This document shows, one piece after another, positions 45,122 through 56,264 of a DNA stretch of 64,000 bases; the stretch's first letter is position 1; the number at the start of each line of letters is the position of its first letter. The notes below the pieces were generated by a model. That model ran no database searches. It saw only the letters and a list, made by a program, of their open reading frames with translations, and was not told where the DNA came from. Location of the stretch: positions 186,001 through 250,000 of the forward strand of contig JAFLCC010000006.1 in NCBI GenBank assembly GCA_017302835.1. Reading direction: 5' to 3'. A program made the translations under genes and the position numbers. This DNA is from Deltaproteobacteria bacterium. GTDB lineage: Bacteria > Bdellovibrionota > Bdellovibrionia > Bdellovibrionales > Bdellovibrionaceae.

Positions 45122-45237
45122 CGATTTCTTTTTTTCACTTAAAGTCACTTTTTTTCAAAATTCCTGTTAAGAGAATTTAACTCATTGGACTTTTTCAGCA
45201 ATTTGGTCTATTGGATATCCACACAAGGAGAACAATT

Positions 45238-46215
45238 ATGAATATTTTTTCACAAGGCAGCAAACTTGCCTTATCAGTTTTTTTAATGTTAGGTGTTTTT
45301 TCAACCTATAAAGCGGATGCCATATCGCTTAGATTTAAATCGAAAATATTTTCAAGCGGGCCAGATATTTACGCTTGTAATGCGGGCGTCGCTTCTGCAT
45401 TTTTACAAAATAGTATCTGTTATTTTGGCGGGAAGAAAGAGAATGGATTTTGTACTCCTTCTTCTTGTTCCAATGCTAAAGAAAATTGCAATACCGACTG
45501 TGTGTGTATTGATAAGGGTGGTCAAGGGGAGACTTATATTAATAAAATTACCTTGAAAGCAAAACTATATGATACGGAAGCGACCCTTCCTCTAGAAAAG
45601 AAAAAGGCTTCTGGACCCGCGTTTCAAAGTGTTTACACTCCTGTAGATTCATGGAATCGAAAAATCTATGATCTGTCGACGCAGTTTATGACCGAAGCCT
45701 ATACCGGATCTTATTTTGTAGATATTTGCTACCGTGGAACTGAAATTCCAGATGGAGAAGGTTATTTTGTCATTTCAACAGAAGCTGCGGCAATTCCCTT
45801 TTTAGTTACAGATTTAACGGGTTATAGTTCTTTAGATAACAACAGAACCGGTCTGGATTTTAATGAGGCGAACATGCTAGGTAAAATTTATACAGATAGA
45901 GCCGAGTTGTCTGTAGAAAGATTTGTTGTCTGTGGTGACACGCAAGCATCTTCTGACTTTGTTCTTAATGGAACAACGGGAGTGCCAACTGGAGGAACTG
46001 CTGGAAATAAATTTTTTAGTTCAGCTTCAGAAATGCAATTGAGATCATCAGCTTTGTCTAAAGCTCACGGATCTGTTATCGATCCTAAGTTTTGTAAATT
46101 TAGATATATTTTTAGGGAAACCAATTGGAAATCAGCAACTCCTTACCGTCGAAGCACTAAGGGTGAAGGCGCTGAGGTTTGTACCTACACTAAAATAAGT
46201 GATCCAACAGAATAA
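45238..46215 (+). CDS. Secreted cysteine-rich protein of unknown function, 325 aa
   Basis: A signal peptide (NIFSQGSKLALSVFLMLGVFSTYKADA) is followed by a cysteine-rich segment at about residues 45-90 (CNAG, SICYFGG, GFCTPSSC, NCNTDCVCID) and a beta-rich remainder with four more cysteines. No family recognised. AAGGAG lies 7 nt before the ATG at 45238, which decides the start against the open frame from 45211. It is first in a run of six secreted-protein genes and probably carries the operon promoter upstream. Confidence 0.65.
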   Translation: MNIFSQGSKLALSVFLMLGVFSTYKADAISLRFKSKIFSSGPDIYACNAGVASAFLQNSICYFGGKKENGFCTPSSCSNAKENCNTDCVCIDKGGQGETYINKITLKAKLYDTEATLPLEKKKASGPAFQSVYTPVDSWNRKIYDLSTQFMTEAYTGSYFVDICYRGTEIPDGEGYFVISTEAAAIPFLVTDLTGYSSLDNNRTGLDFNEANMLGKIYTDRAELSVERFVVCGDTQASSDFVLNGTTGVPTGGTAGNKFFSSASEMQLRSSALSKAHGSVIDPKFCKFRYIFRETNWKSATPYRRSTKGEGAEVCTYTKISDPTE

Positions 46216-46230
46216 TTTAATAAAAAACTA

Positions 46231-46244
46231 AGGGCGAAGGCCCT
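46231..46244 (+). terminator. Short hairpin between the first two secreted-protein genes
   Basis: AGGGC-GAAG-GCCCT, a 5-bp stem with a tetraloop, 16 nt after the stop at 46215. It could be an attenuator or processing site within the operon. The stem is too short for a firm call. Confidence 0.3.
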
Positions 46245-46283
46245 AAAGAGTTAAGACTTTTGAAACAAACTCTGAGGAAAATA

Positions 46284-47819
46284 ATGAGAATTTTCAAATT
46301 AAAGAGACTTCGAAATATTACATCCTCCTTTTTAAAGGTAAGTGCGCTCATGTTGCACTTACCTTTAGTCTTTTCTTTGGCTTGTACTATTGAAAATGTC
46401 GATAAAAATACGGATAAGATTTTTATTTCCAACGAAAATGGTAAGTTAAAATTATTTAAACAAGTTAACCCATTAATGTTAAATTCTTGTAAAGAAGAAG
46501 TCCAGTTGGCGCTATCCGTAGTGTTACCTTCTCCCCAGGATTATTCTTCAGAGTATTGGATGCATGATTCCATAAGTAACAAAAAAACATGTGAAATCAC
46601 CAGTGATCTAAAATTTTTAAAAGAACAAAAAGAAGTTACGAGTGAAGTTTTGTTCAAAAAGTTTAAAATATTTGAAAGCTGTGTGGGATTAAGAGTCAAA
46701 GATCTTGATCAAAAAAAAATTAGACTTTCTAAATCTGTAAATTGCGAAGTTTTGCCAAGCTCAACAGAGAGTGAGCTATTGTTGAAGGGTGATAATTGCT
46801 TTGTGAGAACAACATCAAAAGCTCAGAACCTGGTGGTATCCCCTTTGGTTCTTGATAGTTGTGCTGACATTAAGGACTTTATTGATTTTAATGCCAATCT
46901 TAAAGTTATCAAAATAGAAAATAAAATTCCTGAGATATTAACATCCAAAGATTATCATATCCTGTTTGAAGACAAAGAAGAACCTAGGGGAAAGATAAAA
47001 GTAAAAGAGGGAATGCTTCCTTTTTTTAAAAGTTCCCATTACATGTTAGATTATTATTTTTTTAATTTGATATTTAATGGATCTAAAGATTTGACGTTAA
47101 ATGTTCAAGCTCAATATTTTGTTAATAATTTTTCAAATCAACATTTACCTTTTGTTGTTAAAAATGATCTGACCTTAGTTAAAAAAACAAGCAAAGAAAG
47201 AATATCTTTAGGGCTATGGTACAATGGAATTATAGTTCCTGGTCAATGGATGGGCGTGGATGGCCTATCTGACAATTTGAGTATCACCCATTCTGTGGAG
47301 TCCTACCAATTAAGTCAGAATGCAAAACAAATAGAAAAAGGAGATTTTCTTATTCTCAGTGGGCAGTTAGTATCCCCGAATACAGGCTATCAAAAATTTT
47401 GGAAATTTACCCATGAGTATTTAAAAAAAATGGCTGGAGATAACAGGAAAAGAAAGCCGGGAAAAGTTCGAAGCAGAGTGATTTCCGATGAAATACCTTC
47501 CATCGATGAATTAAAGTCTTTTTCTCAAATTTCCCAGATCGAAGAATTTTCTTTAGAACAAGCGACTAAAAAGATTTTTAATTTGGATCCAAGATTTCAA
47601 ATTCGATTTACCCATGTATGTCAAAAGCTGAATAGGGAAGATTTGGAATGTGAGGATTTTTCAATCGTTGAAGATTTGCCTGAAATCAGGGTTTTATTTG
47701 AAGTTACTGATTCAGAGTATGAAATAAAGGTGAAGCCAATTAAAATAATTAAAACAAACTGGAATCAAAAAAAGGAAGAGGAGAATTTAAATTCTTCTTC
47801 GAGTATTTTATGTCATTAG
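46284..47819 (+). CDS. Secreted protein of unknown function, 511 aa
   Basis: An N-terminal basic region and hydrophobic stretch (SSFLKVSALMLHLPLVFSLA) form a signal peptide, cleaved probably near ACTIEN. The mature part is beta-rich with scattered cysteines. Residues near 385-405 are strongly basic (GDNRKRKPGKVRSR), a possible cleavage or nucleic-acid contact site. The ATG at 46284 has GAGG 8 nt upstream; a TTG at 46260 is also in frame but has none. No family recognised. Second of six co-directional secreted genes. Confidence 0.6.
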   Translation: MRIFKLKRLRNITSSFLKVSALMLHLPLVFSLACTIENVDKNTDKIFISNENGKLKLFKQVNPLMLNSCKEEVQLALSVVLPSPQDYSSEYWMHDSISNKKTCEITSDLKFLKEQKEVTSEVLFKKFKIFESCVGLRVKDLDQKKIRLSKSVNCEVLPSSTESELLLKGDNCFVRTTSKAQNLVVSPLVLDSCADIKDFIDFNANLKVIKIENKIPEILTSKDYHILFEDKEEPRGKIKVKEGMLPFFKSSHYMLDYYFFNLIFNGSKDLTLNVQAQYFVNNFSNQHLPFVVKNDLTLVKKTSKERISLGLWYNGIIVPGQWMGVDGLSDNLSITHSVESYQLSQNAKQIEKGDFLILSGQLVSPNTGYQKFWKFTHEYLKKMAGDNRKRKPGKVRSRVISDEIPSIDELKSFSQISQIEEFSLEQATKKIFNLDPRFQIRFTHVCQKLNREDLECEDFSIVEDLPEIRVLFEVTDSEYEIKVKPIKIIKTNWNQKKEEENLNSSSSILCH

Positions 47820-47844
47820 TCACACGCACTAAAAGGGAGAAATT

Positions 47845-48417
47845 ATGAATCGTACCGTATTGTTAACATTATTATTCTTATCTGGGACTATTTGGGCCGA
47901 TGAAGCTACGGATTTGTTAACAGTGGACACCTTGCAAGGAAATCCTGCGCACGTAGGGCTTTCTACAGTGGATAAAATTGAGCAAGAAATCGTGGCTGGA
48001 ATCAAACAGAAATGTGATATTTATGGATGCGTTCTATTTGTTGATGAAGGAAACGGAAATGAATTTAAGATCACTTTAGGTGGTGGTGTAGGGCAGAATT
48101 ACTCTGGCTATGGCGGTGGTGGTGGCGGAGGAATTAATATCTATGGAGCCCAGTCAGGCAACGATCCCTATTATGGAGTTACTTTTACTTATATTCATAC
48201 CAACTATAAATGTATTCGAAGAGTGCCCGAAGGGACTTACAAGTTAGTTGAAAGTTATCAAAAGCTAATGGCCTCAAAGGAATATGTGGAAAAAGTTTTT
48301 AGTTCATGGAAAAAAGGTGAAGAATTGCCAACACCCGAAAATGTAAAAACAGCACTTTCAGTATTGGTTTCTGTAAAACCAAGTCAGGGAAATTGTGGCA
48401 GACTGGGAAACAACTAA
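47845..48417 (+). CDS. Secreted Gly-rich protein of unknown function, 190 aa
   Basis: A clear signal peptide (MNRTVLLTLLFLSGTIWA). A central Gly/Tyr-rich stretch (about 75-100, with seven consecutive Gly) separates two compact parts. Four cysteines are present. AAAGGGAG precedes the ATG. Its 3' end overlaps the next start by 23 nt, so the two are probably translated in a coupled manner. No family recognised. Confidence 0.62.
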   Translation: MNRTVLLTLLFLSGTIWADEATDLLTVDTLQGNPAHVGLSTVDKIEQEIVAGIKQKCDIYGCVLFVDEGNGNEFKITLGGGVGQNYSGYGGGGGGGINIYGAQSGNDPYYGVTFTYIHTNYKCIRRVPEGTYKLVESYQKLMASKEYVEKVFSSWKKGEELPTPENVKTALSVLVSVKPSQGNCGRLGNN

Positions 48418-50962
48418 AATAAATTTTCTAAAACTTCTTCTGTTTTTTTTGTTAGGTTTCGGTTTCCGAAGTTTTTCCGAAGTTTATTCTTTTTCTAATA
48501 CCAACCTCTGCGCCAGACAGTCATTGGACCCGGCAAACTCGGTCTATTTGTTAATGGATGGATTTGCACCAGGTCGAGCTGCCATGAAAAGAGCCTATGA
48601 TCTGAATTTATCTTCTCCGGAACTTGTTAAGAAGGTTTGGGCAGAGTACCATAAAAGAGCCTTCTATCTTTCTCATAAAATTTTAAATCACTTATCAAAT
48701 GGACAGTTGCCTCTCCTTTCTGACGAAACAGTTAAGTCCTGTCATGGAAACATCAGAAACTGTTTAATTCTTAAAAATTTAGTTCTTGAAAATTGGAACC
48801 GAGTTTTCGAAACAACTCCAGGAAAAAATGTGAAATGTTCTTGGATTAAAAAAGCCATTCCTTTAAATTTTGCAATCAATTTTGAATCTAGAAATCCGAC
48901 AAGGGATGATTTAGAAAAACTTGCCATGAGCTATCTGGATAAAAATAATTATATTGATCGTTGTGAAAATATACTGAATTTAGACCTTCAAAATCAACCT
49001 GACTTGGTTCTGAGGTTGAATTTTCCGCCATTCAAAGATTCTAAGGAGGGGTTTCAATTTTGGAATTCGTTTAAGATTTATTTGACTTATATTTGGGGCC
49101 TAAAAATTAATTCTGGAAAGTTTAAATTTGAAGACTTGTCTAGGAGCTTTGCGGTTGAGGAGTTAATGACTCTCATGGCTGACGGTTGCCAGTCGATATC
49201 CAAACCAGAATGTTCTTCTGATTTTTTAAACACCTCGCAGTTTCGAGATATCATCAAAAAGGGCAAATTTGATGATAATTATTTAATGGCCAATGAGATT
49301 TTAAAGGCAGAAATTACGAAAGCTAAAAATGAGCTAAACCCTGATGAGAAGTCATCGAAACAAAGTTTTTCTGCAGGTAATTTTGATCTTCGCAATCAGT
49401 TGTTGTCTACTATGAAATTTAGACATCAAGCTCAATTTCAGTTTTATAAAAGTTATAAGACTTTAAAAACAATTTTTAATCAAAAAAAGGTTAATGAAAT
49501 AGTGAATGACTTAAACACTCTTGAAGGCATCGAAAGATCTGAGGCCGAGCAGGAAAAGGAAGTCATGTGCAGTGAATTATTAAAATTTTCAAATAAAGAA
49601 GTGAGTGGTTTCGCAAAAGAGATAATCCAAGCTAGATCTGTTTTTGCTGCAAGTGAAAATTCTGAACTTTTAAATCTTTGGGAAAAAGTGATAGATCTTT
49701 CATTGAAGTTAAAACCTTTTTGTCAGGATGTGGAAAATAAATTAAAACTTAAGATGGTGTCAGAGGATGCCTCTACCAAAATCATGAGGACGAAGAAATG
49801 GTCCAAAACAGTGACACAGTATTTATTGCCTTTTGATATTCAAAATGATTTGACAGAGAAAAATCAATCTCGTTCGCATCCTTACGTAAAGCTTGCGGAA
49901 GAAATAATTTGTGATAACCCTATAGACTGTGTTCGTTCATCTATGGAGTCAGCGGTTAACTTGTATCAAGTTATGCTGTACCGGAATCAGGCTTTAAATA
50001 AGCTTCCAAACGAGTTGAATGCCCAAGGCAGTCTTGCGGGAGCCGTGGCTTGTCAACTTTATGATCCTTGGGCTGAAAGTCAATTAAGGAAAAAAAAGCT
50101 TATCAGTGACATCATCAGCTCCGTGATATCGGGAGTGACGATGCTTCCGATTTATTTAGATTTAACATTTCAGCAGCCTCAGATTACCAGTTTTAAACAG
50201 CTGATGGATTCAGGAACTATAAAATTTGACCCTATTTTTAACGAAAATGACATTAAAAAGACTCTTTTTATAGATCTGGGTCCTGTGGCAAGAACAAATT
50301 GTTATTTAAGTTTATCAAATAGTATAGATTTGAATTTACATCAATACAGGTACGTTTTTAGTGGTGTCACCTTTCAGGGCTGCATGAAAAAGGCGGCTGG
50401 GGAAATGAATTCTGATCTCCTCAGCTTAACCGAAAACAAACTAAATGAGCTCAGCGCTTGTGGGTCTTGTACTTTGAATTTTGAATCGGTAGCCATGGCC
50501 GCAGTGGAGTCGAATTACAGTGTTCTTCGAGCTGGTCTTAGAATTTTTGCGAGCTTGATTTATTATCTGAGGGAGTCCGAAAACCCTAAAACCAACCCCA
50601 TCGAGTTTCAGATAAATTCTGATTACATCGTAGAGACTTTTCAAAAATACAATTCTATTCCAGATAAGTGTGTTTATGAGCTGATTAATGGTTCAAAGTG
50701 TATGGAAGATCTTTGTGTTTCCAAAACAGTTTCTGAACTTGAGAAATCCACTGGGCTTAAAGTGGAATCAGCATCGATATGGAGTTCAAGTTTAGAAAAG
50801 GGTGTCGGTGGATCAGACCATCCAGCAAAGGACGTTTGGGTTAAGATTGTTGGGTGTCAAAGGGAAGAACGAATACCTATCACTTGTGTTACTAACAGAA
50901 TCCCTAGTTTTATTAATATATCAAATCATCTGAAAAATCTTTCATGCGGAAGAGGTCAATAA
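48395..50962 (+). CDS. Large secreted protein of unknown function, 855 aa
   Basis: The start is GTG with AGGGA just upstream, inside the end of the preceding gene. The signal peptide is FLKLLLFFLLGFGFRSFS. The mature part is long, mainly alpha-helical and charged, with more than a dozen cysteines scattered as single residues or near pairs (for example ACGSC near residue 690), which suits an oxidised periplasmic or exported protein. No catalytic motif or family is recognised. It is the largest gene of the six-gene group; the next gene starts 2 nt after its stop. Confidence 0.62.
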   Translation: MADWETTKINFLKLLLFFLLGFGFRSFSEVYSFSNTNLCARQSLDPANSVYLLMDGFAPGRAAMKRAYDLNLSSPELVKKVWAEYHKRAFYLSHKILNHLSNGQLPLLSDETVKSCHGNIRNCLILKNLVLENWNRVFETTPGKNVKCSWIKKAIPLNFAINFESRNPTRDDLEKLAMSYLDKNNYIDRCENILNLDLQNQPDLVLRLNFPPFKDSKEGFQFWNSFKIYLTYIWGLKINSGKFKFEDLSRSFAVEELMTLMADGCQSISKPECSSDFLNTSQFRDIIKKGKFDDNYLMANEILKAEITKAKNELNPDEKSSKQSFSAGNFDLRNQLLSTMKFRHQAQFQFYKSYKTLKTIFNQKKVNEIVNDLNTLEGIERSEAEQEKEVMCSELLKFSNKEVSGFAKEIIQARSVFAASENSELLNLWEKVIDLSLKLKPFCQDVENKLKLKMVSEDASTKIMRTKKWSKTVTQYLLPFDIQNDLTEKNQSRSHPYVKLAEEIICDNPIDCVRSSMESAVNLYQVMLYRNQALNKLPNELNAQGSLAGAVACQLYDPWAESQLRKKKLISDIISSVISGVTMLPIYLDLTFQQPQITSFKQLMDSGTIKFDPIFNENDIKKTLFIDLGPVARTNCYLSLSNSIDLNLHQYRYVFSGVTFQGCMKKAAGEMNSDLLSLTENKLNELSACGSCTLNFESVAMAAVESNYSVLRAGLRIFASLIYYLRESENPKTNPIEFQINSDYIVETFQKYNSIPDKCVYELINGSKCMEDLCVSKTVSELEKSTGLKVESASIWSSSLEKGVGGSDHPAKDVWVKIVGCQREERIPITCVTNRIPSFINISNHLKNLSCGRGQ

Positions 50963-50964
50963 GA

Positions 50965-51588
50965 ATGAAAAATTTAATTCAAATGATCTTGATCTGTTTT
51001 TCGTTTTCTCATTTTCTTTTAGCGGCACCAAAGTCAATCCCTAAAGTAATTCCAGAGAGTCATCAGCCCTTTGAAATGAGTGAATATAAAATGAGTAAAG
51101 AAAAAATAAGTTATGAAAGTGATTTCACTATGGGATATTTTATTGAATGCAGTGAAAAAAGCTCTCAACTTTGTCAAAATTTGTGTCACCAAAATAAATG
51201 TTTGCTGAATGAGGATTCCTGTGAAGGGTGTATTTCTTCAAATAATTATCAAATGTATTCTCTTTATCGTGATTTAAAGAGCATTTATGCAGTATCATTA
51301 AATCAAAGTTCAACAATTCAGGTACTAACCGAATTTCAAAATGAGGCATTGTTTGTTGTTGATAGCACTTCCATTTTTGGTCTATTTATGGATGTTTCGG
51401 ATGGGCTTCAATTAAATAAAATGAAAGCCGATTTCTTAAGTTATTGTCCGCAGGGAAGCAAAGAAAGTTTTTTGGTTCTTTCAAAAAATGAAGATCATTT
51501 TTTGAAATTAAAGTTTATTATTTGTCAAAGTTCCAGTGAATTTGCCATTTTTCAAATCCATTTCAATAAAGAGTATGAAAATGACTAA
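50965..51588 (+). CDS. Secreted protein of unknown function, 207 aa
   Basis: A signal peptide (MKNLIQMILICFSFSHFLLA), then a proline-containing linker and a small domain. A cluster of seven cysteines lies between about residues 60 and 85 (IECSEK, LCQNLCHQNKC, DSCEGC), which suggests a disulphide-bonded knot or a metal site. The ATG at 50965 has AGAGGT upstream at the right distance; an in-frame start at 50944 lies within the previous gene. It overlaps the next gene by 8 nt. Confidence 0.6.
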   Translation: MKNLIQMILICFSFSHFLLAAPKSIPKVIPESHQPFEMSEYKMSKEKISYESDFTMGYFIECSEKSSQLCQNLCHQNKCLLNEDSCEGCISSNNYQMYSLYRDLKSIYAVSLNQSSTIQVLTEFQNEALFVVDSTSIFGLFMDVSDGLQLNKMKADFLSYCPQGSKESFLVLSKNEDHFLKLKFIICQSSSEFAIFQIHFNKEYEND

Positions 51589-52774
51589 AATTTTTCTGGT
51601 TGTTTTTCTAGCTGCCTTTAGTTTGCTTGCAGAGGTTTGGCATTCTGAAAACGAATGGAGTCTTGATTGGGAAAATAAGTATTCAGATTGGGTTAAAGAA
51701 TCTTGGGTACAGGAAATCTTCACTGATGAAGAGAGTCTTTTGTATGGCTTAAAAACTGATTGTGCGGACGCTACTTATTTTATGAGGGCTTATTTTTCTT
51801 ACAAAAATAAACTGCCATTTGTAGCCACATCATCAAGTGGCAAACTCCTTACTGAGAAGTCAAAACAATTTGATTTTCTTTTAGATGAAAATAAAAAATT
51901 TATTAGTTTTTTAAAATACATAGCCGATGTGACCAACACCTACACCTTAGCAAAGGATACTCTGCCCATTCCTATGAATAGAAAGGTGTTGAGGGCCGGA
52001 GCTGTTTATGTAAGCCCAGGAATTCATTCTTATCAAATTGTGGATTTGGATGAATATGGAAATGTAACAACCCTCAGCTCAACAGTACCCAGAGACGTTA
52101 GAATTTTATTTAAAAATTATGGATTTCCTTTCTACATTCCTAAGGATATAAAAAGCGAAAAAGATGGTTTTAGAGTTTTCAAGTGGCCTTCAGAATATAC
52201 TTTGCCGGATAAAGAAAATCTTCGCAGATCTTCTGAACAATATGAACTGTTTAAGCCCTATGAGAACTCCTTCGTTCGGTATAATGATTTTGTTATAGAT
52301 CGATTTAAATTGAAAGCTGAACCCTTGGAAAATAAGATAAATAGAGTTTATGAAAGCCTTTGTTATTATTCAAGAGAAAGATCGGCACAGGTCACCCAAG
52401 CCTACGTTCGGTGGTTAGAGACTCGAAAAACTTGTTTATCTCGGTCCGATTACGATGAGTACAGTACTTTTTTTAGAGATGATCAACTAAAAGAATATTT
52501 CAATTATTTTCGGTCTATAAGGTCTAATGAATCTTGGTCGGAGCTTAGCTCGGAAACGAAAGAGAAATTCCTATCCGTTTTTAACCAAAAATATGCAAGA
52601 ATGGGATGCCTTGTGGAGACTACTTGGCCTCAACAGCCAGTGATAACTTTATTTGAAATTAGAGAGGCTCTTGAAAAAGGACTTATCGTTTCCGATCCCA
52701 ATGCGGATATTGCCCAAAGATGGGGATTAAAGTCCTTTGGGCCAAAATGCTTACGATATGAGACAGTGCCCTAA
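51581..52774 (+). CDS. Secreted papain-like cysteine hydrolase (predicted), 397 aa
   Basis: A signal peptide (MTKIFLVVFLAAFSLLA) is followed by a domain with the order Cys, His, Asp seen in papain-like and transglutaminase-like enzymes: Cys61 in TDCADATYFMRAYFSY, His149 in GIHSYQIVDLD, and Asp155 close behind. The family cannot be named. The second half (about 215-397) is helical with further cysteines. The ATG at 51581 fits AAAGAG at 8 nt better than the ATG at 51575. It is the last gene of the six-gene group and the only one with a recognisable active-site pattern; it overlaps mreB (convergent) by 4 nt. Confidence 0.55.
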   Translation: MTKIFLVVFLAAFSLLAEVWHSENEWSLDWENKYSDWVKESWVQEIFTDEESLLYGLKTDCADATYFMRAYFSYKNKLPFVATSSSGKLLTEKSKQFDFLLDENKKFISFLKYIADVTNTYTLAKDTLPIPMNRKVLRAGAVYVSPGIHSYQIVDLDEYGNVTTLSSTVPRDVRILFKNYGFPFYIPKDIKSEKDGFRVFKWPSEYTLPDKENLRRSSEQYELFKPYENSFVRYNDFVIDRFKLKAEPLENKINRVYESLCYYSRERSAQVTQAYVRWLETRKTCLSRSDYDEYSTFFRDDQLKEYFNYFRSIRSNESWSELSSETKEKFLSVFNQKYARMGCLVETTWPQQPVITLFEIREALEKGLIVSDPNADIAQRWGLKSFGPKCLRYETVP

Positions 52775-53808
52775 AGTTCCAATTGAATTTTTTCTAGAAG
52801 AGAAGGGTCCTCTAAAACCATTTCACCACCGATGGCAATAGCCACGAGGGGGGAGTTGGCAACCCTAACGGGAAGCCTGACTTCATTTTGAATTCTTAAG
52901 CTAAAATCCTTAATAAGAGCCCCTCCACCGGCGAGCCAAATACCTTTATCGATGATATCTGAAACCAGCTCTGGTGGAGTGTTTTCGAGGGCTTTGTGAA
53001 TGGCATTAATTATTTGTTGGAGGCAATCATTCATGGCGATCCCAACTTCTTCTGAAGTGACTTCCATGGTTTTCTGCATCCCTGTTTCCGTATCTCTTCC
53101 ACTAACAATGGCTGTTTGAATTTCCTTTTTTGGAACCGCGGTTCCAATAGAGATTTTTAAAAGTTCTGCCTGGGACTCGGGAATTATAATATTTTTATAT
53201 TTTTTAAAATAAGCAATGATATCTTCATCTATTTTATGGCCGCCCACGCGGATGGCCTCACAATAAACAATATCAGCAAGGGCAATCACCGCAACTTCTG
53301 TCGTTCCTCCACCAATATCCACAATCATATTTCCCAGGGCTGATTTGATTTCTAAACCACTTCCTATGGCGGCAGCCATTGGTTCATCAATTAAATAGAC
53401 TTTTTTGCTGCCAGCTTTCTTGCAGGCTTCAACAACCGCTTTTTTTTCTACTTCAGTGACTCCAAAGGGTAAGGAGACTACCACGCGAGGTGAGGAAAAA
53501 TGTTTTTTAACCTGGGGATGATTTAGAAAAAACTTGAGCATGTGTTCTGCTGAATCAAAATCGGCAATCACTCCATCTTTTATAGGTTTTAGAATAAAAA
53601 TATTACCAGTTTGTTTCTCAGAAATTTCCTTCGCAGCTAAGCCAACAGCCACAATCTTTTTTTTATGAGGGGAATTTGAAAGATAGGCCACAATGCTGGG
53701 CTCGTTAAGGACGATCCCTTTCCCCCGTGCTGAGATGACCGTGTTCGCGGTACCCAGATCGACATAAATATCAGCTCCATTTTTATCTTCTCGAAACCAG
53801 GAAAACAT
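52771..53808 (-). CDS. mreB: Rod-shape actin homologue MreB, 345 aa
   Basis: Actin-fold motifs: phosphate 1 IYVDLGTANTVI, connect 1, the second Asp-Gly-Val-Ile-Ala-Asp-Phe stretch, phosphate 2 VDIGGGTTEVAVIAL, adenosine motif WLAGGGALIKDF. Full length. The ATG at 53808 is preceded by AAGGAG and begins at the conserved MFSWF membrane-binding start; the longer frame to 53868 does not fit the family. mreC and mreD are not adjacent, unlike in most bacteria. The gene follows the outer-membrane-like gene with a single base between stop and start, so the two are coupled. Bdellovibrio species have two mreB genes; this may be the second kind. Confidence 0.95.
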   Translation of the reverse strand: MFSWFREDKNGADIYVDLGTANTVISARGKGIVLNEPSIVAYLSNSPHKKKIVAVGLAAKEISEKQTGNIFILKPIKDGVIADFDSAEHMLKFFLNHPQVKKHFSSPRVVVSLPFGVTEVEKKAVVEACKKAGSKKVYLIDEPMAAAIGSGLEIKSALGNMIVDIGGGTTEVAVIALADIVYCEAIRVGGHKIDEDIIAYFKKYKNIIIPESQAELLKISIGTAVPKKEIQTAIVSGRDTETGMQKTMEVTSEEVGIAMNDCLQQIINAIHKALENTPPELVSDIIDKGIWLAGGGALIKDFSLRIQNEVRLPVRVANSPLVAIAIGGEMVLEDPSLLEKIQLEL

Positions 53809-53809
53809 A

Positions 53810-54445
53810 TTACTCCTTTTTCTTTCTTCTTTGGAAGCCCTTATTGGCATCAAAAGGAATGCTGGCAAACAGGCTTAGACCCGATTCAGAGTTATTTAGA
53901 TTTAAGGCGAATTCTCCTGCGAAAAAAACGCTCTCAAGGTCTGGGTGTTGGTACTCGGTGCCTACAACAAATTGAGTTCCAGTGCTGTTATTACTCTTTG
54001 TATAAACTAAATTGATGGGTACCGCGAAATAAGGAGTCATGGTGCCCTTCTCAATATCTACTTTTTTGCTGATTAAGGGGCTGATTTGAAAGGCTGTGGT
54101 GCTGGTGTCAGCAATTCGAGCAAGCCAAATCGAAGCTTTGATTCCAATGGCCGGCTGATTCATGAAGTCAGGAAAGGGAATATATTTAACGGAGCCACCC
54201 AGATGAAAATCAACAGATCCTAGACCAAACAAAAACCGAGAAGAGAGCTCATCACTTCCACCCATGTCCAGAAAGGTACCGATATTAAGGCCCGATTTCC
54301 CTGCGGTGAGACTTTGTAAACTGGCACCAATTCGATAAGTTCCTTGGGGAAGGGTTTCCCCAGATTCTCCGATGCTTAAGTAGTTAGCCTTAGCATAGAA
54401 AGCGGTTGTTAGAAGCAAAAGAACAAGGTGGAATTTAAACTTCAT
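53810..54445 (-). CDS. Outer-membrane-like protein coupled to mreB, 211 aa
   Basis: A signal peptide (FKFHLVLLLLTTAFYAKA) is followed by a chain of amphipathic beta-strand candidates with many Gly, Ser and aromatic residues, as in small barrels, ending in a basic tail (RRKKKE). The tail is unusual for a barrel, which normally ends in Phe. The mreB ribosome binding site lies inside its last codons. The ATG at 54445 is preceded by AGGAAC; the longer frame to 54499 lacks support. Function unknown. Confidence 0.55.
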   Translation of the reverse strand: MKFKFHLVLLLLTTAFYAKANYLSIGESGETLPQGTYRIGASLQSLTAGKSGLNIGTFLDMGGSDELSSRFLFGLGSVDFHLGGSVKYIPFPDFMNQPAIGIKASIWLARIADTSTTAFQISPLISKKVDIEKGTMTPYFAVPINLVYTKSNNSTGTQFVVGTEYQHPDLESVFFAGEFALNLNNSESGLSLFASIPFDANKGFQRRKKKE

Positions 54446-54552: not shown

Positions 54553-55320
54553 ATGAATATTGAAAAAATACCTTTGAGTATTGTCGTGATTACTTTTAAT
54601 GAGGAAAAAAATTTGAGGAGATGTCTAAATTCTGCTAGTTTCGCACAAGATATCGTGGTGTTAGATAGCATATCTAAAGATAAAACTAAAGAGATCTCCT
54701 TAGCCTGTGGAGCCCGATTTTATGAACAGACTTGGTTGGGTTTTGGTAGGCAAAAGAAAAAAGCTGTGGGTCTCGCAATGTTTGATTGGGTGTTATGTCT
54801 GGATGCGGATGAGGAAATAAGCAAAGACCTGCATGATGAATTGATTTTACGCTGGTCAGAATTAAAAGAGGATACGGGATATAAACTTCCAAGATTGTCA
54901 TTTTATTTAAATAAATGGATTCATCATGGTGGATGGTACCCAGATTATCAATTGAGATTGTTTAACAGGAAATTTTCTCAGTGGTCTGAAGATCTCATTC
55001 ATGAAAAAGTTTTATCTCCAAAAACAGAAAATTTTAAAAGCGCCTTAAATCATTACGTATTTGATGACATTGCTGATCAGGTGAATACAAATAATAAGTA
55101 TTCTAGCTTGCAATCTGAAAAGATGAATCATGAGGGACGTCGGTTTAATGGTTTTCATTTTATAACAAAACCCATGGTTAAATTTATAGAATGTTACTTT
55201 TATAAAATGGGATTTTTAGATGGATGGGTTGGTTTTATCATTGCCATCAGTGCGGCCTATTCTGTTTTTTTGAAATGGGCAAAGCTTTGGGAGCTGAAAG
55301 AGAAGAGGAGTGTCAAGTGA
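54553..55320 (+). CDS. Family 2 glycosyltransferase, LPS-core type, 255 aa
   Basis: GT-A fold: LSIVVITFNEEKNLRRCLNS at the N-terminus, VVLDSISKDKT, and the metal-binding Asp-Ala-Asp in LCLDADEEIS. The stretch HHGGWYPDYQLRLFNR is typical of WaaE/KdtX-like LPS core beta-glycosyltransferases, and the C-terminus is hydrophobic. It would add a sugar to the LPS core at the inner membrane. The stop overlaps the next start by 1 nt. Confidence 0.88.
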   Translation: MNIEKIPLSIVVITFNEEKNLRRCLNSASFAQDIVVLDSISKDKTKEISLACGARFYEQTWLGFGRQKKKAVGLAMFDWVLCLDADEEISKDLHDELILRWSELKEDTGYKLPRLSFYLNKWIHHGGWYPDYQLRLFNRKFSQWSEDLIHEKVLSPKTENFKSALNHYVFDDIADQVNTNNKYSSLQSEKMNHEGRRFNGFHFITKPMVKFIECYFYKMGFLDGWVGFIIAISAAYSVFLKWAKLWELKEKRSVK

Positions 55321-56264
55321 TGGCATGGAATAGAAGCACCTGTCTTTGTCTTGTTATTTATTTGATTTTCATTCAAGTGAAAATAGCAAATGCAGCTAAT
55401 TTAGAAATTAAGTCAGTCCCTCCCGTTTTTAAAATCTTGTCTAACGCTTCGGAGGCACTCAATAAAAAAGAAGTATTTCTTAATCAAAAAGCCTTGACCA
55501 CCTATAAGACGCTTGACTTCCCCTCCGGGGAATATGAGGTCAAAACGAATCAATCGAGTGCTTTTTTCGTGTTTAATAGCAATCTGAGAGTGAAGATAAA
55601 CCCAAATTCTGAATTAAAAATGATATTAGGGTCTCAGGATAATCCAGGTATGTTGTTTGAGATAAGAAAAGGGCTTGCCTATTTTAAATCAGGAAATTCT
55701 CCTTTTGAGCTCTTCATTGAAAAGTTATTCCAATTTAAAGTTTTTTCCGGAGACTTATCAGTTGATTACGTCTTCTCTTCAAAAAAAACCACCTTTTATG
55801 CATTTGTTGCTGATCAGAATATTCAAGTTTTAGGCGATAACCGTGTCACCCTCCTTAAACCGAATCATAAAATTGAATATATTCCTGAGTTGATCGAGCG
55901 CGAATTGTCCTATGATTTTTTGCTCAATGATAGAAAAATTCCTAAGTTTCAAGTTAATCAGGATATCATTGATAATTCTTCTTTTTTGAAAGAGGAAGAA
56001 TGGGGAAATGAAAAGGTTAATAAGGCTAATTTAAATTTAAAGAAAAAACCTGAATTGAAATCAAAAACGGTATTTAAGAGTCCGACACAAATTTGCATTA
56101 AACCTGCGGCCAATTATTTAGATTGTTACTGGGTTAGGAAAGAAAAAAAATGTCATCGATTTCATTGTAATTTAAATGGACAGTGGGTTCAGGAAACTGA
56201 ATTTAATGAAATTTCGGAATGTCCAATACGCCCCACGGTCAAACCTTGCGAGTGGATGAATTAA
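55320..56264 (+). CDS. FecR-like secreted protein, 314 aa
   Basis: A signal peptide (TCLCLVIYLIFIQVKIANA) is followed by a FecR-like beta domain at about residues 60-130: FPSGEYEVKTNQSSAFFVFN and NPNSELKMIL, then LFEIRKGLAYFKSG. FecR-type domains in exported proteins act in cell-surface sensing or as binding modules. A C-terminal cysteine-rich part (about 255-314) has eight cysteines and may be a separate small domain. The ATG at 55320 overlaps the TGA of the glycosyltransferase. Function unknown. Confidence 0.65.
   Translation: MAWNRSTCLCLVIYLIFIQVKIANAANLEIKSVPPVFKILSNASEALNKKEVFLNQKALTTYKTLDFPSGEYEVKTNQSSAFFVFNSNLRVKINPNSELKMILGSQDNPGMLFEIRKGLAYFKSGNSPFELFIEKLFQFKVFSGDLSVDYVFSSKKTTFYAFVADQNIQVLGDNRVTLLKPNHKIEYIPELIERELSYDFLLNDRKIPKFQVNQDIIDNSSFLKEEEWGNEKVNKANLNLKKKPELKSKTVFKSPTQICIKPAANYLDCYWVRKEKKCHRFHCNLNGQWVQETEFNEISECPIRPTVKPCEWMN

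What the first reader, a model, noticed from the sequence alone, without database searches (positions are those of the whole stretch)
45238..52774. Six tightly linked genes for unknown secreted proteins
Six co-directional genes (325, 511, 190, 855, 207 and 397 aa) all have signal peptides, mostly many cysteines, and gaps between -23 and +68 nt. Only the last has an enzyme-like Cys-His-Asp pattern. Coupled translation and common export argue for one envelope complex or a secreted assembly. None resembles a known secretion or pilus component.
Basis: partly seen in the sequence, partly recalled or inferred. Interest (0 to 1): 0.6.

Follow-up and report, generated by a model that had tools for sequence, protein, structure and literature searches.

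The report
Undescribed predator-group secreted protein cassette
Six neighbouring genes encode exported, mostly disulfide-rich proteins of no known family; they are inherited together as one cassette in a minority of Bdellovibrionota (the phylum of Bdellovibrio-type bacterial predators), and sequence and structure predictions suggest they build a surface assembly in which one subunit may hook onto the next through a strand at its N-terminus.

Summary
In detail: six co-directional genes of 325, 511, 190, 855, 207 and 397 aa, gaps -23 to +68, each with a signal-peptide-like start, five of them rich in cysteine. It is not a chance cluster. Related cassettes lie in 34 loci, all with Bdellovibrionota or unresolved proteobacterial titles. 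E855 and B325 each occur in 75 of 369 phylum genomes, 71 shared (p = 9e-66). Divergences of the six proteins correlate (r 0.54-0.95). Two sub-blocks, D-E-F and B-C(-B'), swap order; the window's site is empty in two relatives. B. bacteriovorus HD100 carries two copies; a genome of B. exovorus size has none. Five families match nothing in Pfam, NCBIfam or PDB sequences. G397 models as NlpC/P60-like with conserved Cys61 and His149. B325 models as a beta-sandwich; its strongly conserved, perfectly alternating strand right after the signal-peptide cleavage site is left unplaced in the monomer, and its paralog B' lacks it. I infer a disulfide-locked surface or periplasmic assembly, perhaps polymerised by donor strands as TasA is, with G397 trimming peptidoglycan. 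Assembly, localisation and any role in predation are untested. Usher and TasA genes are absent from the genomes checked.

The parts
45238..46215 (+). B325: beta-sandwich exported protein. Cleavage-site Ala28 is followed by an alternating hydrophobic strand (ISLRFKSKI) and SSGPxIYxCNAG
   Evidence: Most conserved protein of the block within the genus (64-66% identity); model pLDDT 78 with residues 21-39 unplaced; strand statistics
45319..45363 (+). Codons 28-42 of B325: Ala28, candidate donor strand and SSGP (AISLRFKSKIFSSGP)
   Evidence: Hydrophobic in 82-100% of 28 sequences at positions 29/31/33/35/37 and in 0-7% at 30/32/34/36; column identity 0.74 against 0.45 for residues 61-325
46284..47819 (+). 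C511: exported protein with 10-12 conserved Cys, one at or near the mature N-terminus; no known family
47845..48417 (+). D190: exported protein with 4 invariant Cys and a Gly-rich middle; no known family
48395..50962 (+). E855: largest exported protein, 22 Cys, nearly all conserved; no known family; overlaps D190 by 23 nt
50965..51588 (+). F207: small exported protein with 8 invariant Cys; no known family
51581..52774 (+). G397: exported NlpC/P60-like cysteine hydrolase candidate (Cys61, His149) with a helical C-terminal part; overlaps F207 by 8 nt
   Evidence: model pLDDT 87.6; ten of the first eleven VIA-align rows are NlpC/P60-type domains, Z 5.2-7.3; Cys61 and His149 invariant
45122..45237 (+). 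Non-coding leader upstream of the block (no conserved promoter identified); AAGGAG ribosome site before B325

Best explanation
The block is one functional cassette, an undescribed exported multi-protein assembly of Bdellovibrionota. All six proteins are exported by Sec; disulfides lock B325, C511, D190, E855 and F207 in the oxidising periplasm or outside the cell. B325 would be the repeating subunit: an incomplete beta-sandwich whose mature N-terminal strand inserts into the next subunit (donor-strand complementation, as in TasA, but without usher or TasA genes). Where present, B', which keeps the sandwich but lacks the strand, would cap or anchor the polymer. C511, D190, E855 and F207 would form the base, tip or ligand-binding parts, with E855 as scaffold. 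G397 would be a Cys-His NlpC/P60-like peptidoglycan hydrolase that makes room for the assembly or remodels a neighbour's wall; it is optional. Shown: gene structure, co-inheritance, family novelty, conserved cysteines and the strand pattern. Predicted: folds of B325 and G397. Inferred: polymerisation, partners, location and use at the cell surface.
For: Co-inheritance: 34 loci carry the block or fragments of it in swapped sub-block orders; E855 and B325 coincide in 71 of 75 genomes each, of 369 (p 9e-66); distance matrices correlate (r 0.54-0.95, 0 of 500 permutations reach them). Moves as a unit: empty site between the same flanking genes in G003 and G194, other sites in HD100. Export: hydrophobic N-termini kept in nearly all full-length homologues. 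Strand: perfect alternation directly after invariant Ala28 in 28 diverse sequences, one of the two most conserved stretches of the protein, yet pLDDT 36-41 while the next ten residues score 90; B' paralogs lack it. TasA polymerises through an N-terminal strand of the mature protein (PMC9674648), and the TasA fibre is among B325's structural matches (Z 5.4). No usher or TasA family in four carrier genomes, with positive controls. G397.
Against: No complex was modelled or measured. B325's structural matches are weak (best Z 6.5, no Foldseek E below 0.001) and dominated by sugar-binding jelly-rolls rather than fibre proteins. Low pLDDT next to a signal peptide can simply reflect the leader and a 28-sequence alignment. 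Window B325 has Ser at one of the five alternating positions (35). B' is missing in the window's own genus. Distance correlation partly reflects shared ancestry of linked genes. Patchy presence shows the assembly is dispensable for predation in general.
Confidence: 0.42

Rival explanations
1. The block makes a non-polymeric, disulfide-rich exported complex (periplasmic or outer-membrane) in which the B325 N-terminal strand docks into a heterologous partner such as C511 or E855; E855 is the hub and B325 and B' are sugar-binding lectin-like domains.
For: B325's best structural matches are mostly sugar-binding jelly-rolls: Fbs1, CBM families, a surface glycan-binding protein. Co-inheritance of five unrelated families suits a hetero-complex as well as a fibre. 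B' without the strand is retained next to B.
Against: No evidence of sugar-binding residues; jelly-roll matches at Z 5-6.5 are unspecific.
Confidence: 0.3
2. The block is a prey-directed weapon: a multi-subunit secreted effector delivered into or onto prey, with G397 cutting prey peptidoglycan and the other proteins binding or permeabilising it.
For: Found only in the phylum of Bdellovibrio-type predators; one HD100 copy lies a few kb from dgcB (Bd0742), which is required for prey entry (PMC3271064); NlpC/P60-like enzyme.
Against: No immunity gene recognised; absent from several Bdellovibrio-genus genomes (G190, G194, G204) and from G007, whose size is that of B. exovorus JSS; the dgcB neighbourhood is not shared by the window; no toxin-like domain found; G397 missing from one HD100 copy.
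Confidence: 0.17
3. A protective coat or matrix: disulfide-crosslinked proteins forming an external layer or biofilm matrix of the cell or of a resting stage.
For: Five Cys-rich families with conserved Cys, and a beta-sandwich subunit with a donor-strand-like end as in the matrix protein TasA.
Confidence: 0.09

Closest known systems
TasA / TapA fibres of Bacillus subtilis (donor-strand matrix fibre)
   Same: Secreted beta-sandwich subunit; N-terminal strand of the mature protein with hydrophobic residues that dock in the next subunit; no usher; accessory protein (PMC9674648)
   Different: No sequence relation (PF12389 absent); B325 is Cys-rich, from diderm bacteria, with unrelated partner families; polymerisation not shown; fold match weak (Z 5.4)
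Archaeal threads (Saci_0406)
   Different: Archaeal, glycosylated; no disulfide-rich partner set known; not compared by structure here
Chaperone-usher pili
   Same: Donor-strand idea; one subunit type without an N-terminal extension resembles a tip adhesin
   Different: No usher (PF00577) in G000, G189, G001 or G016, with E. coli as positive control
NlpC/P60 peptidoglycan endopeptidases (RipA/RipB)
   Same: Cys at a helix start followed by an antiparallel sheet with His; VIA Z 6.1-7.3 for RipA, RipB, RipD and MAP P60 domains
   Different: No Pfam or NCBIfam NlpC/P60 hit; only a sub-threshold DUF4846 similarity; extra helical C-terminal part; third catalytic residue unclear
Bd2209-2212 and Bd2723-2726 operons of B. 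bacteriovorus
   Same: Duplicated operons of mostly hypothetical proteins predicted to form one complex (PMC12034629)
   Different: Different protein sizes (four genes, 153-995 aa); not this cassette

Membership tests
TasA-type donor-strand fibre | TasA/camelysin sequence family (PF12389) | tested here: not met
   No match in four carrier genomes, B. subtilis positive; no Pfam hit for 28 B325 members
TasA-type donor-strand fibre | Beta-sandwich subunit of the TasA fold | tested here: inconclusive
   Model is a beta-sandwich; TasA fibre 8aur Z 5.4 over 142 residues, tied with many jelly-rolls
TasA-type donor-strand fibre | Mature N-terminal strand complements the next subunit | not testable with these tools
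   Pattern fits but no multimer prediction was possible
Chaperone-usher pilus | Usher encoded in the genome | tested here: not met
   PF00577 absent in G000, G189, G001, G016; the chaperone was not searched separately
NlpC/P60 peptidase (G397) | Sequence match to NlpC/P60 or CHAP profiles | tested here: not met
   No such hit for 15 members at E up to 1; DUF4846 sub-threshold in 7 of 15
NlpC/P60 peptidase (G397) | NlpC/P60 (papain-like) fold | tested here: inconclusive
   Ten of the first eleven VIA rows are NlpC/P60-type, Z 5.2-7.3, 108-127 aligned residues; below Z 8 and no significant Foldseek hit
NlpC/P60 peptidase (G397) | Cys-His catalytic pair at a helix N-terminus and a following strand | tested here: met
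   Cys61 and His149 invariant in both alignments; Cys61 starts helix 61-75 and His149 starts strand 149-156. Superposition of the residues on RipA was not done
Type IV pilus, type II or type IV secretion components | Recognisable subunit profiles | tested here: not met
   No Pfam or NCBIfam hit above cut-off for any block protein
Prey-directed effector system | Delivery to prey or effect on prey | not tested
   No expression, localisation or knockout data found for these genes; searches for nearby HD100 tags found nothing on them

The most novel reading that the evidence does not exclude
A previously unknown class of diderm surface polymer: B325 assembles by N-terminal donor-strand exchange without an usher, disulfide-locked, on a base of four protein families unrelated to any described one, with its own peptidoglycan hydrolase, moving between genomic sites as a cassette and used at the predator's surface.
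Probability: 0.25. Interest if true: 0.8.

Novelty: new variant of a known kind. Interest (0 to 1): 0.58.

Why it matters
Predatory bacteria rely on surface structures that are still poorly listed. A cassette of five protein families with no known relative, duplicated in the model predator HD100, is a concrete target for knockouts and cryo-EM. If B325 polymerises, it would be a donor-strand fibre in diderm bacteria made without an usher, and would bear on how such polymers arise outside Bacillus and archaea.

Tried and rejected
Conjugation-type (TraN/TraU) parts, considered because of the 22 Cys in E855: no profile hit, dropped. The Bd2209-2212/Bd2723-2726 complexes of PMC12034629: sizes do not fit, dropped. 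Phage origin: B325 relatives absent from IMG/VR and only weak PHROGs hits of unknown function. Internal relatedness: the pairs compared (B-C, B-D, E-F, C-E) showed no similarity. PDB sequence searches with six profiles gave only chance hits. Foldseek alone found nothing significant for G397 or B325. No conserved promoter in the leader. A 15-bp hairpin in the C511 start looked like an attenuator but is not conserved in place or sequence in four relatives. Main-text literature for estimated HD100 tags Bd0744-0755 and Bd2938-2943 returned nothing about the block; the tags are estimates. Only two structure predictions were allowed, so C511, D190, E855 and F207 have no model.

Full report
WHAT WAS CLAIMED AND WHAT IS THERE. 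The six ORFs exist with the stated lengths and spacing. I call them B325, C511, D190, E855, F207 and G397 in window order. Ribosome-binding-like sequences precede most of them. The block is preceded by a 116-nt non-coding leader and ends convergently with an MreB-like gene on the other strand (52771-53868), overlapping it by 4 nt. Cysteine is 2.45% in the block against 1.08% in the other ORFs of the window (p 8e-9); G397 does not share the excess.

THE BLOCK IS A UNIT. Protein searches in 60 relatives found the same genes together. A scan of 84,980 species genomes with a B325 profile gave 34 loci, all from records titled Bdellovibrio, Bdellovibrionaceae, Bdellovibrionales, Bacteriovorax, Bacteriovoracaceae, Halobacteriovorax or Oligoflexia, or from proteobacterial or deltaproteobacterial MAGs without finer titles (the scan depends on two peptide patterns, so distant relatives elsewhere could be missed). 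Gene maps show two sub-blocks, D-E-F and B-C, with a second B-like gene (B') after C in many genera. The order is B-C-D-E-F-G in the window's genus and D-E-F-B-C-B'-G in Bdellovibrio; in some Bacteriovoracaceae the sub-blocks are divergent but adjacent. G397 is optional. Across 369 genomes of the phylum, E855 and B325 each occur in 75, with 71 in common (p 9e-66). Pairwise divergences of the families correlate with r 0.54-0.95 and no permutation of 500 reaches them. Part of that is expected of linked genes, but it persists across rearranged loci.

IT CHANGES PLACE AS A WHOLE. In the congener G003 and in the Bdellovibrio genome G194, the genes that flank the block in the window (aminotransferase-like and MreB-like) are neighbours, with one peptidase-like gene (an HEVAH motif, my reading) or about 160 nt between them. 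dgcB is required for prey entry (PMC3271064), but the window's block has other neighbours, so this is only a lead. The cassette is therefore not a general requirement for predation.

WHAT THE PROTEINS ARE. Pfam, NCBIfam, PHROGs and PDB sequence searches, single and by family, gave nothing convincing for B, C, D, E and F, and the pairs compared show no relation to each other. G397 has a sub-threshold similarity to DUF4846 in 7 of 15 members. Its model is good (pLDDT 87.6). Foldseek found nothing significant, but ten of VIA-align's first eleven rows over residues 16-202 are NlpC/P60-type domains, nine of them mycobacterial RipA/RipB/RipD or MAP P60 structures at Z 6.1-7.3 (the other row is a phage tail-tip protein). 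Cys61 lies at a helix start and His149 at a strand start, as that fold requires, and both are invariant. RipD is described as non-catalytic in its entry title, so activity needs an assay. Many G397 relatives lie outside the block, some inside open frames of 900-1100 codons.

B325. The model (pLDDT 78) is a beta-sandwich; its structural matches are weak and mostly sugar-binding jelly-rolls, with the TasA fibre among them. The most informative feature is in the sequence. Right after invariant Ala28, the likely cleavage site, positions 29, 31, 33, 35 and 37 are hydrophobic in 82-100% of 28 diverse sequences and positions 30, 32, 34 and 36 in 0-7%; then follows a nearly invariant SSGP turn. This stretch belongs to one of the two best conserved regions of the protein, yet the monomer model leaves it unplaced (pLDDT 36-41) while the following residues score 90. 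The B' paralogs keep the core and lack the strand. That is what a donor strand looks like: TasA extends a mature N-terminal strand into the next subunit (PMC9674648), and archaeal threads conserve residues directly after the processing site (PMC9715654). The carrier genomes tested have no usher and no TasA family, so if B325 polymerises it does so by another route.

HOW IT MOST LIKELY WORKS. Shown: gene structure, unit inheritance, conserved cysteines, strand pattern. Predicted: folds of B325 and G397. Inferred: export of all six, disulfide locking, B325 polymerisation or strand docking, B' as cap, C/D/E/F as base or tip, G397 as peptidoglycan trimmer. A non-polymeric complex in which the strand docks into C511 or E855 fits almost as well; a prey-directed effector or a coat fits less well.

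MEMBERSHIP. It works like a donor-strand system at most; it is not a member of the TasA or chaperone-usher families, whose sequence criteria were tested and not met. G397 works like NlpC/P60 enzymes by fold, but fails their sequence profiles.

VERDICT. A real, conserved and, as far as the held literature shows, undescribed cassette; mechanism moderately supported for B325, open for the rest.

Noticed in passing
46332-46368: 15-bp hairpin followed by a T-rich run inside the signal-peptide codons of C511; looks like a terminator or attenuator but relatives have no hairpin of the same sequence or place.
   Followed up: partly
L029:2491-5279 and L045:7476-10443: A G397 paralog follows a 531-576-aa exported protein of unknown family in two congeners; in L029 the pair sits directly upstream of the block.
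   Followed up: no
L103, L104, L105, L106, L108, L110: G397-like regions inside exported proteins of about 970-1100 aa with no Pfam domain, spread through the phylum.
   Followed up: partly
L107:1870-3519: A roughly 550-700-aa class shares only the Cys motif region of G397 and occurs in many genomes; weak CHAP similarity.
   Followed up: no
L035:15971-18999: In G028 the block is divergent from genes starting MNKIRFLGQKGQGTLLIVS and MNSRGMTLIEVLMAIGI, which look like prepilin-type proteins.
   Followed up: no
55224-56264: ORF with the highest Cys content outside the block (3.47%), conserved in the genus at the same place.
   Followed up: no
L121:10960-11775: In G003 the block's site holds one exported peptidase-like gene with an HEVAH motif instead.
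   Followed up: no
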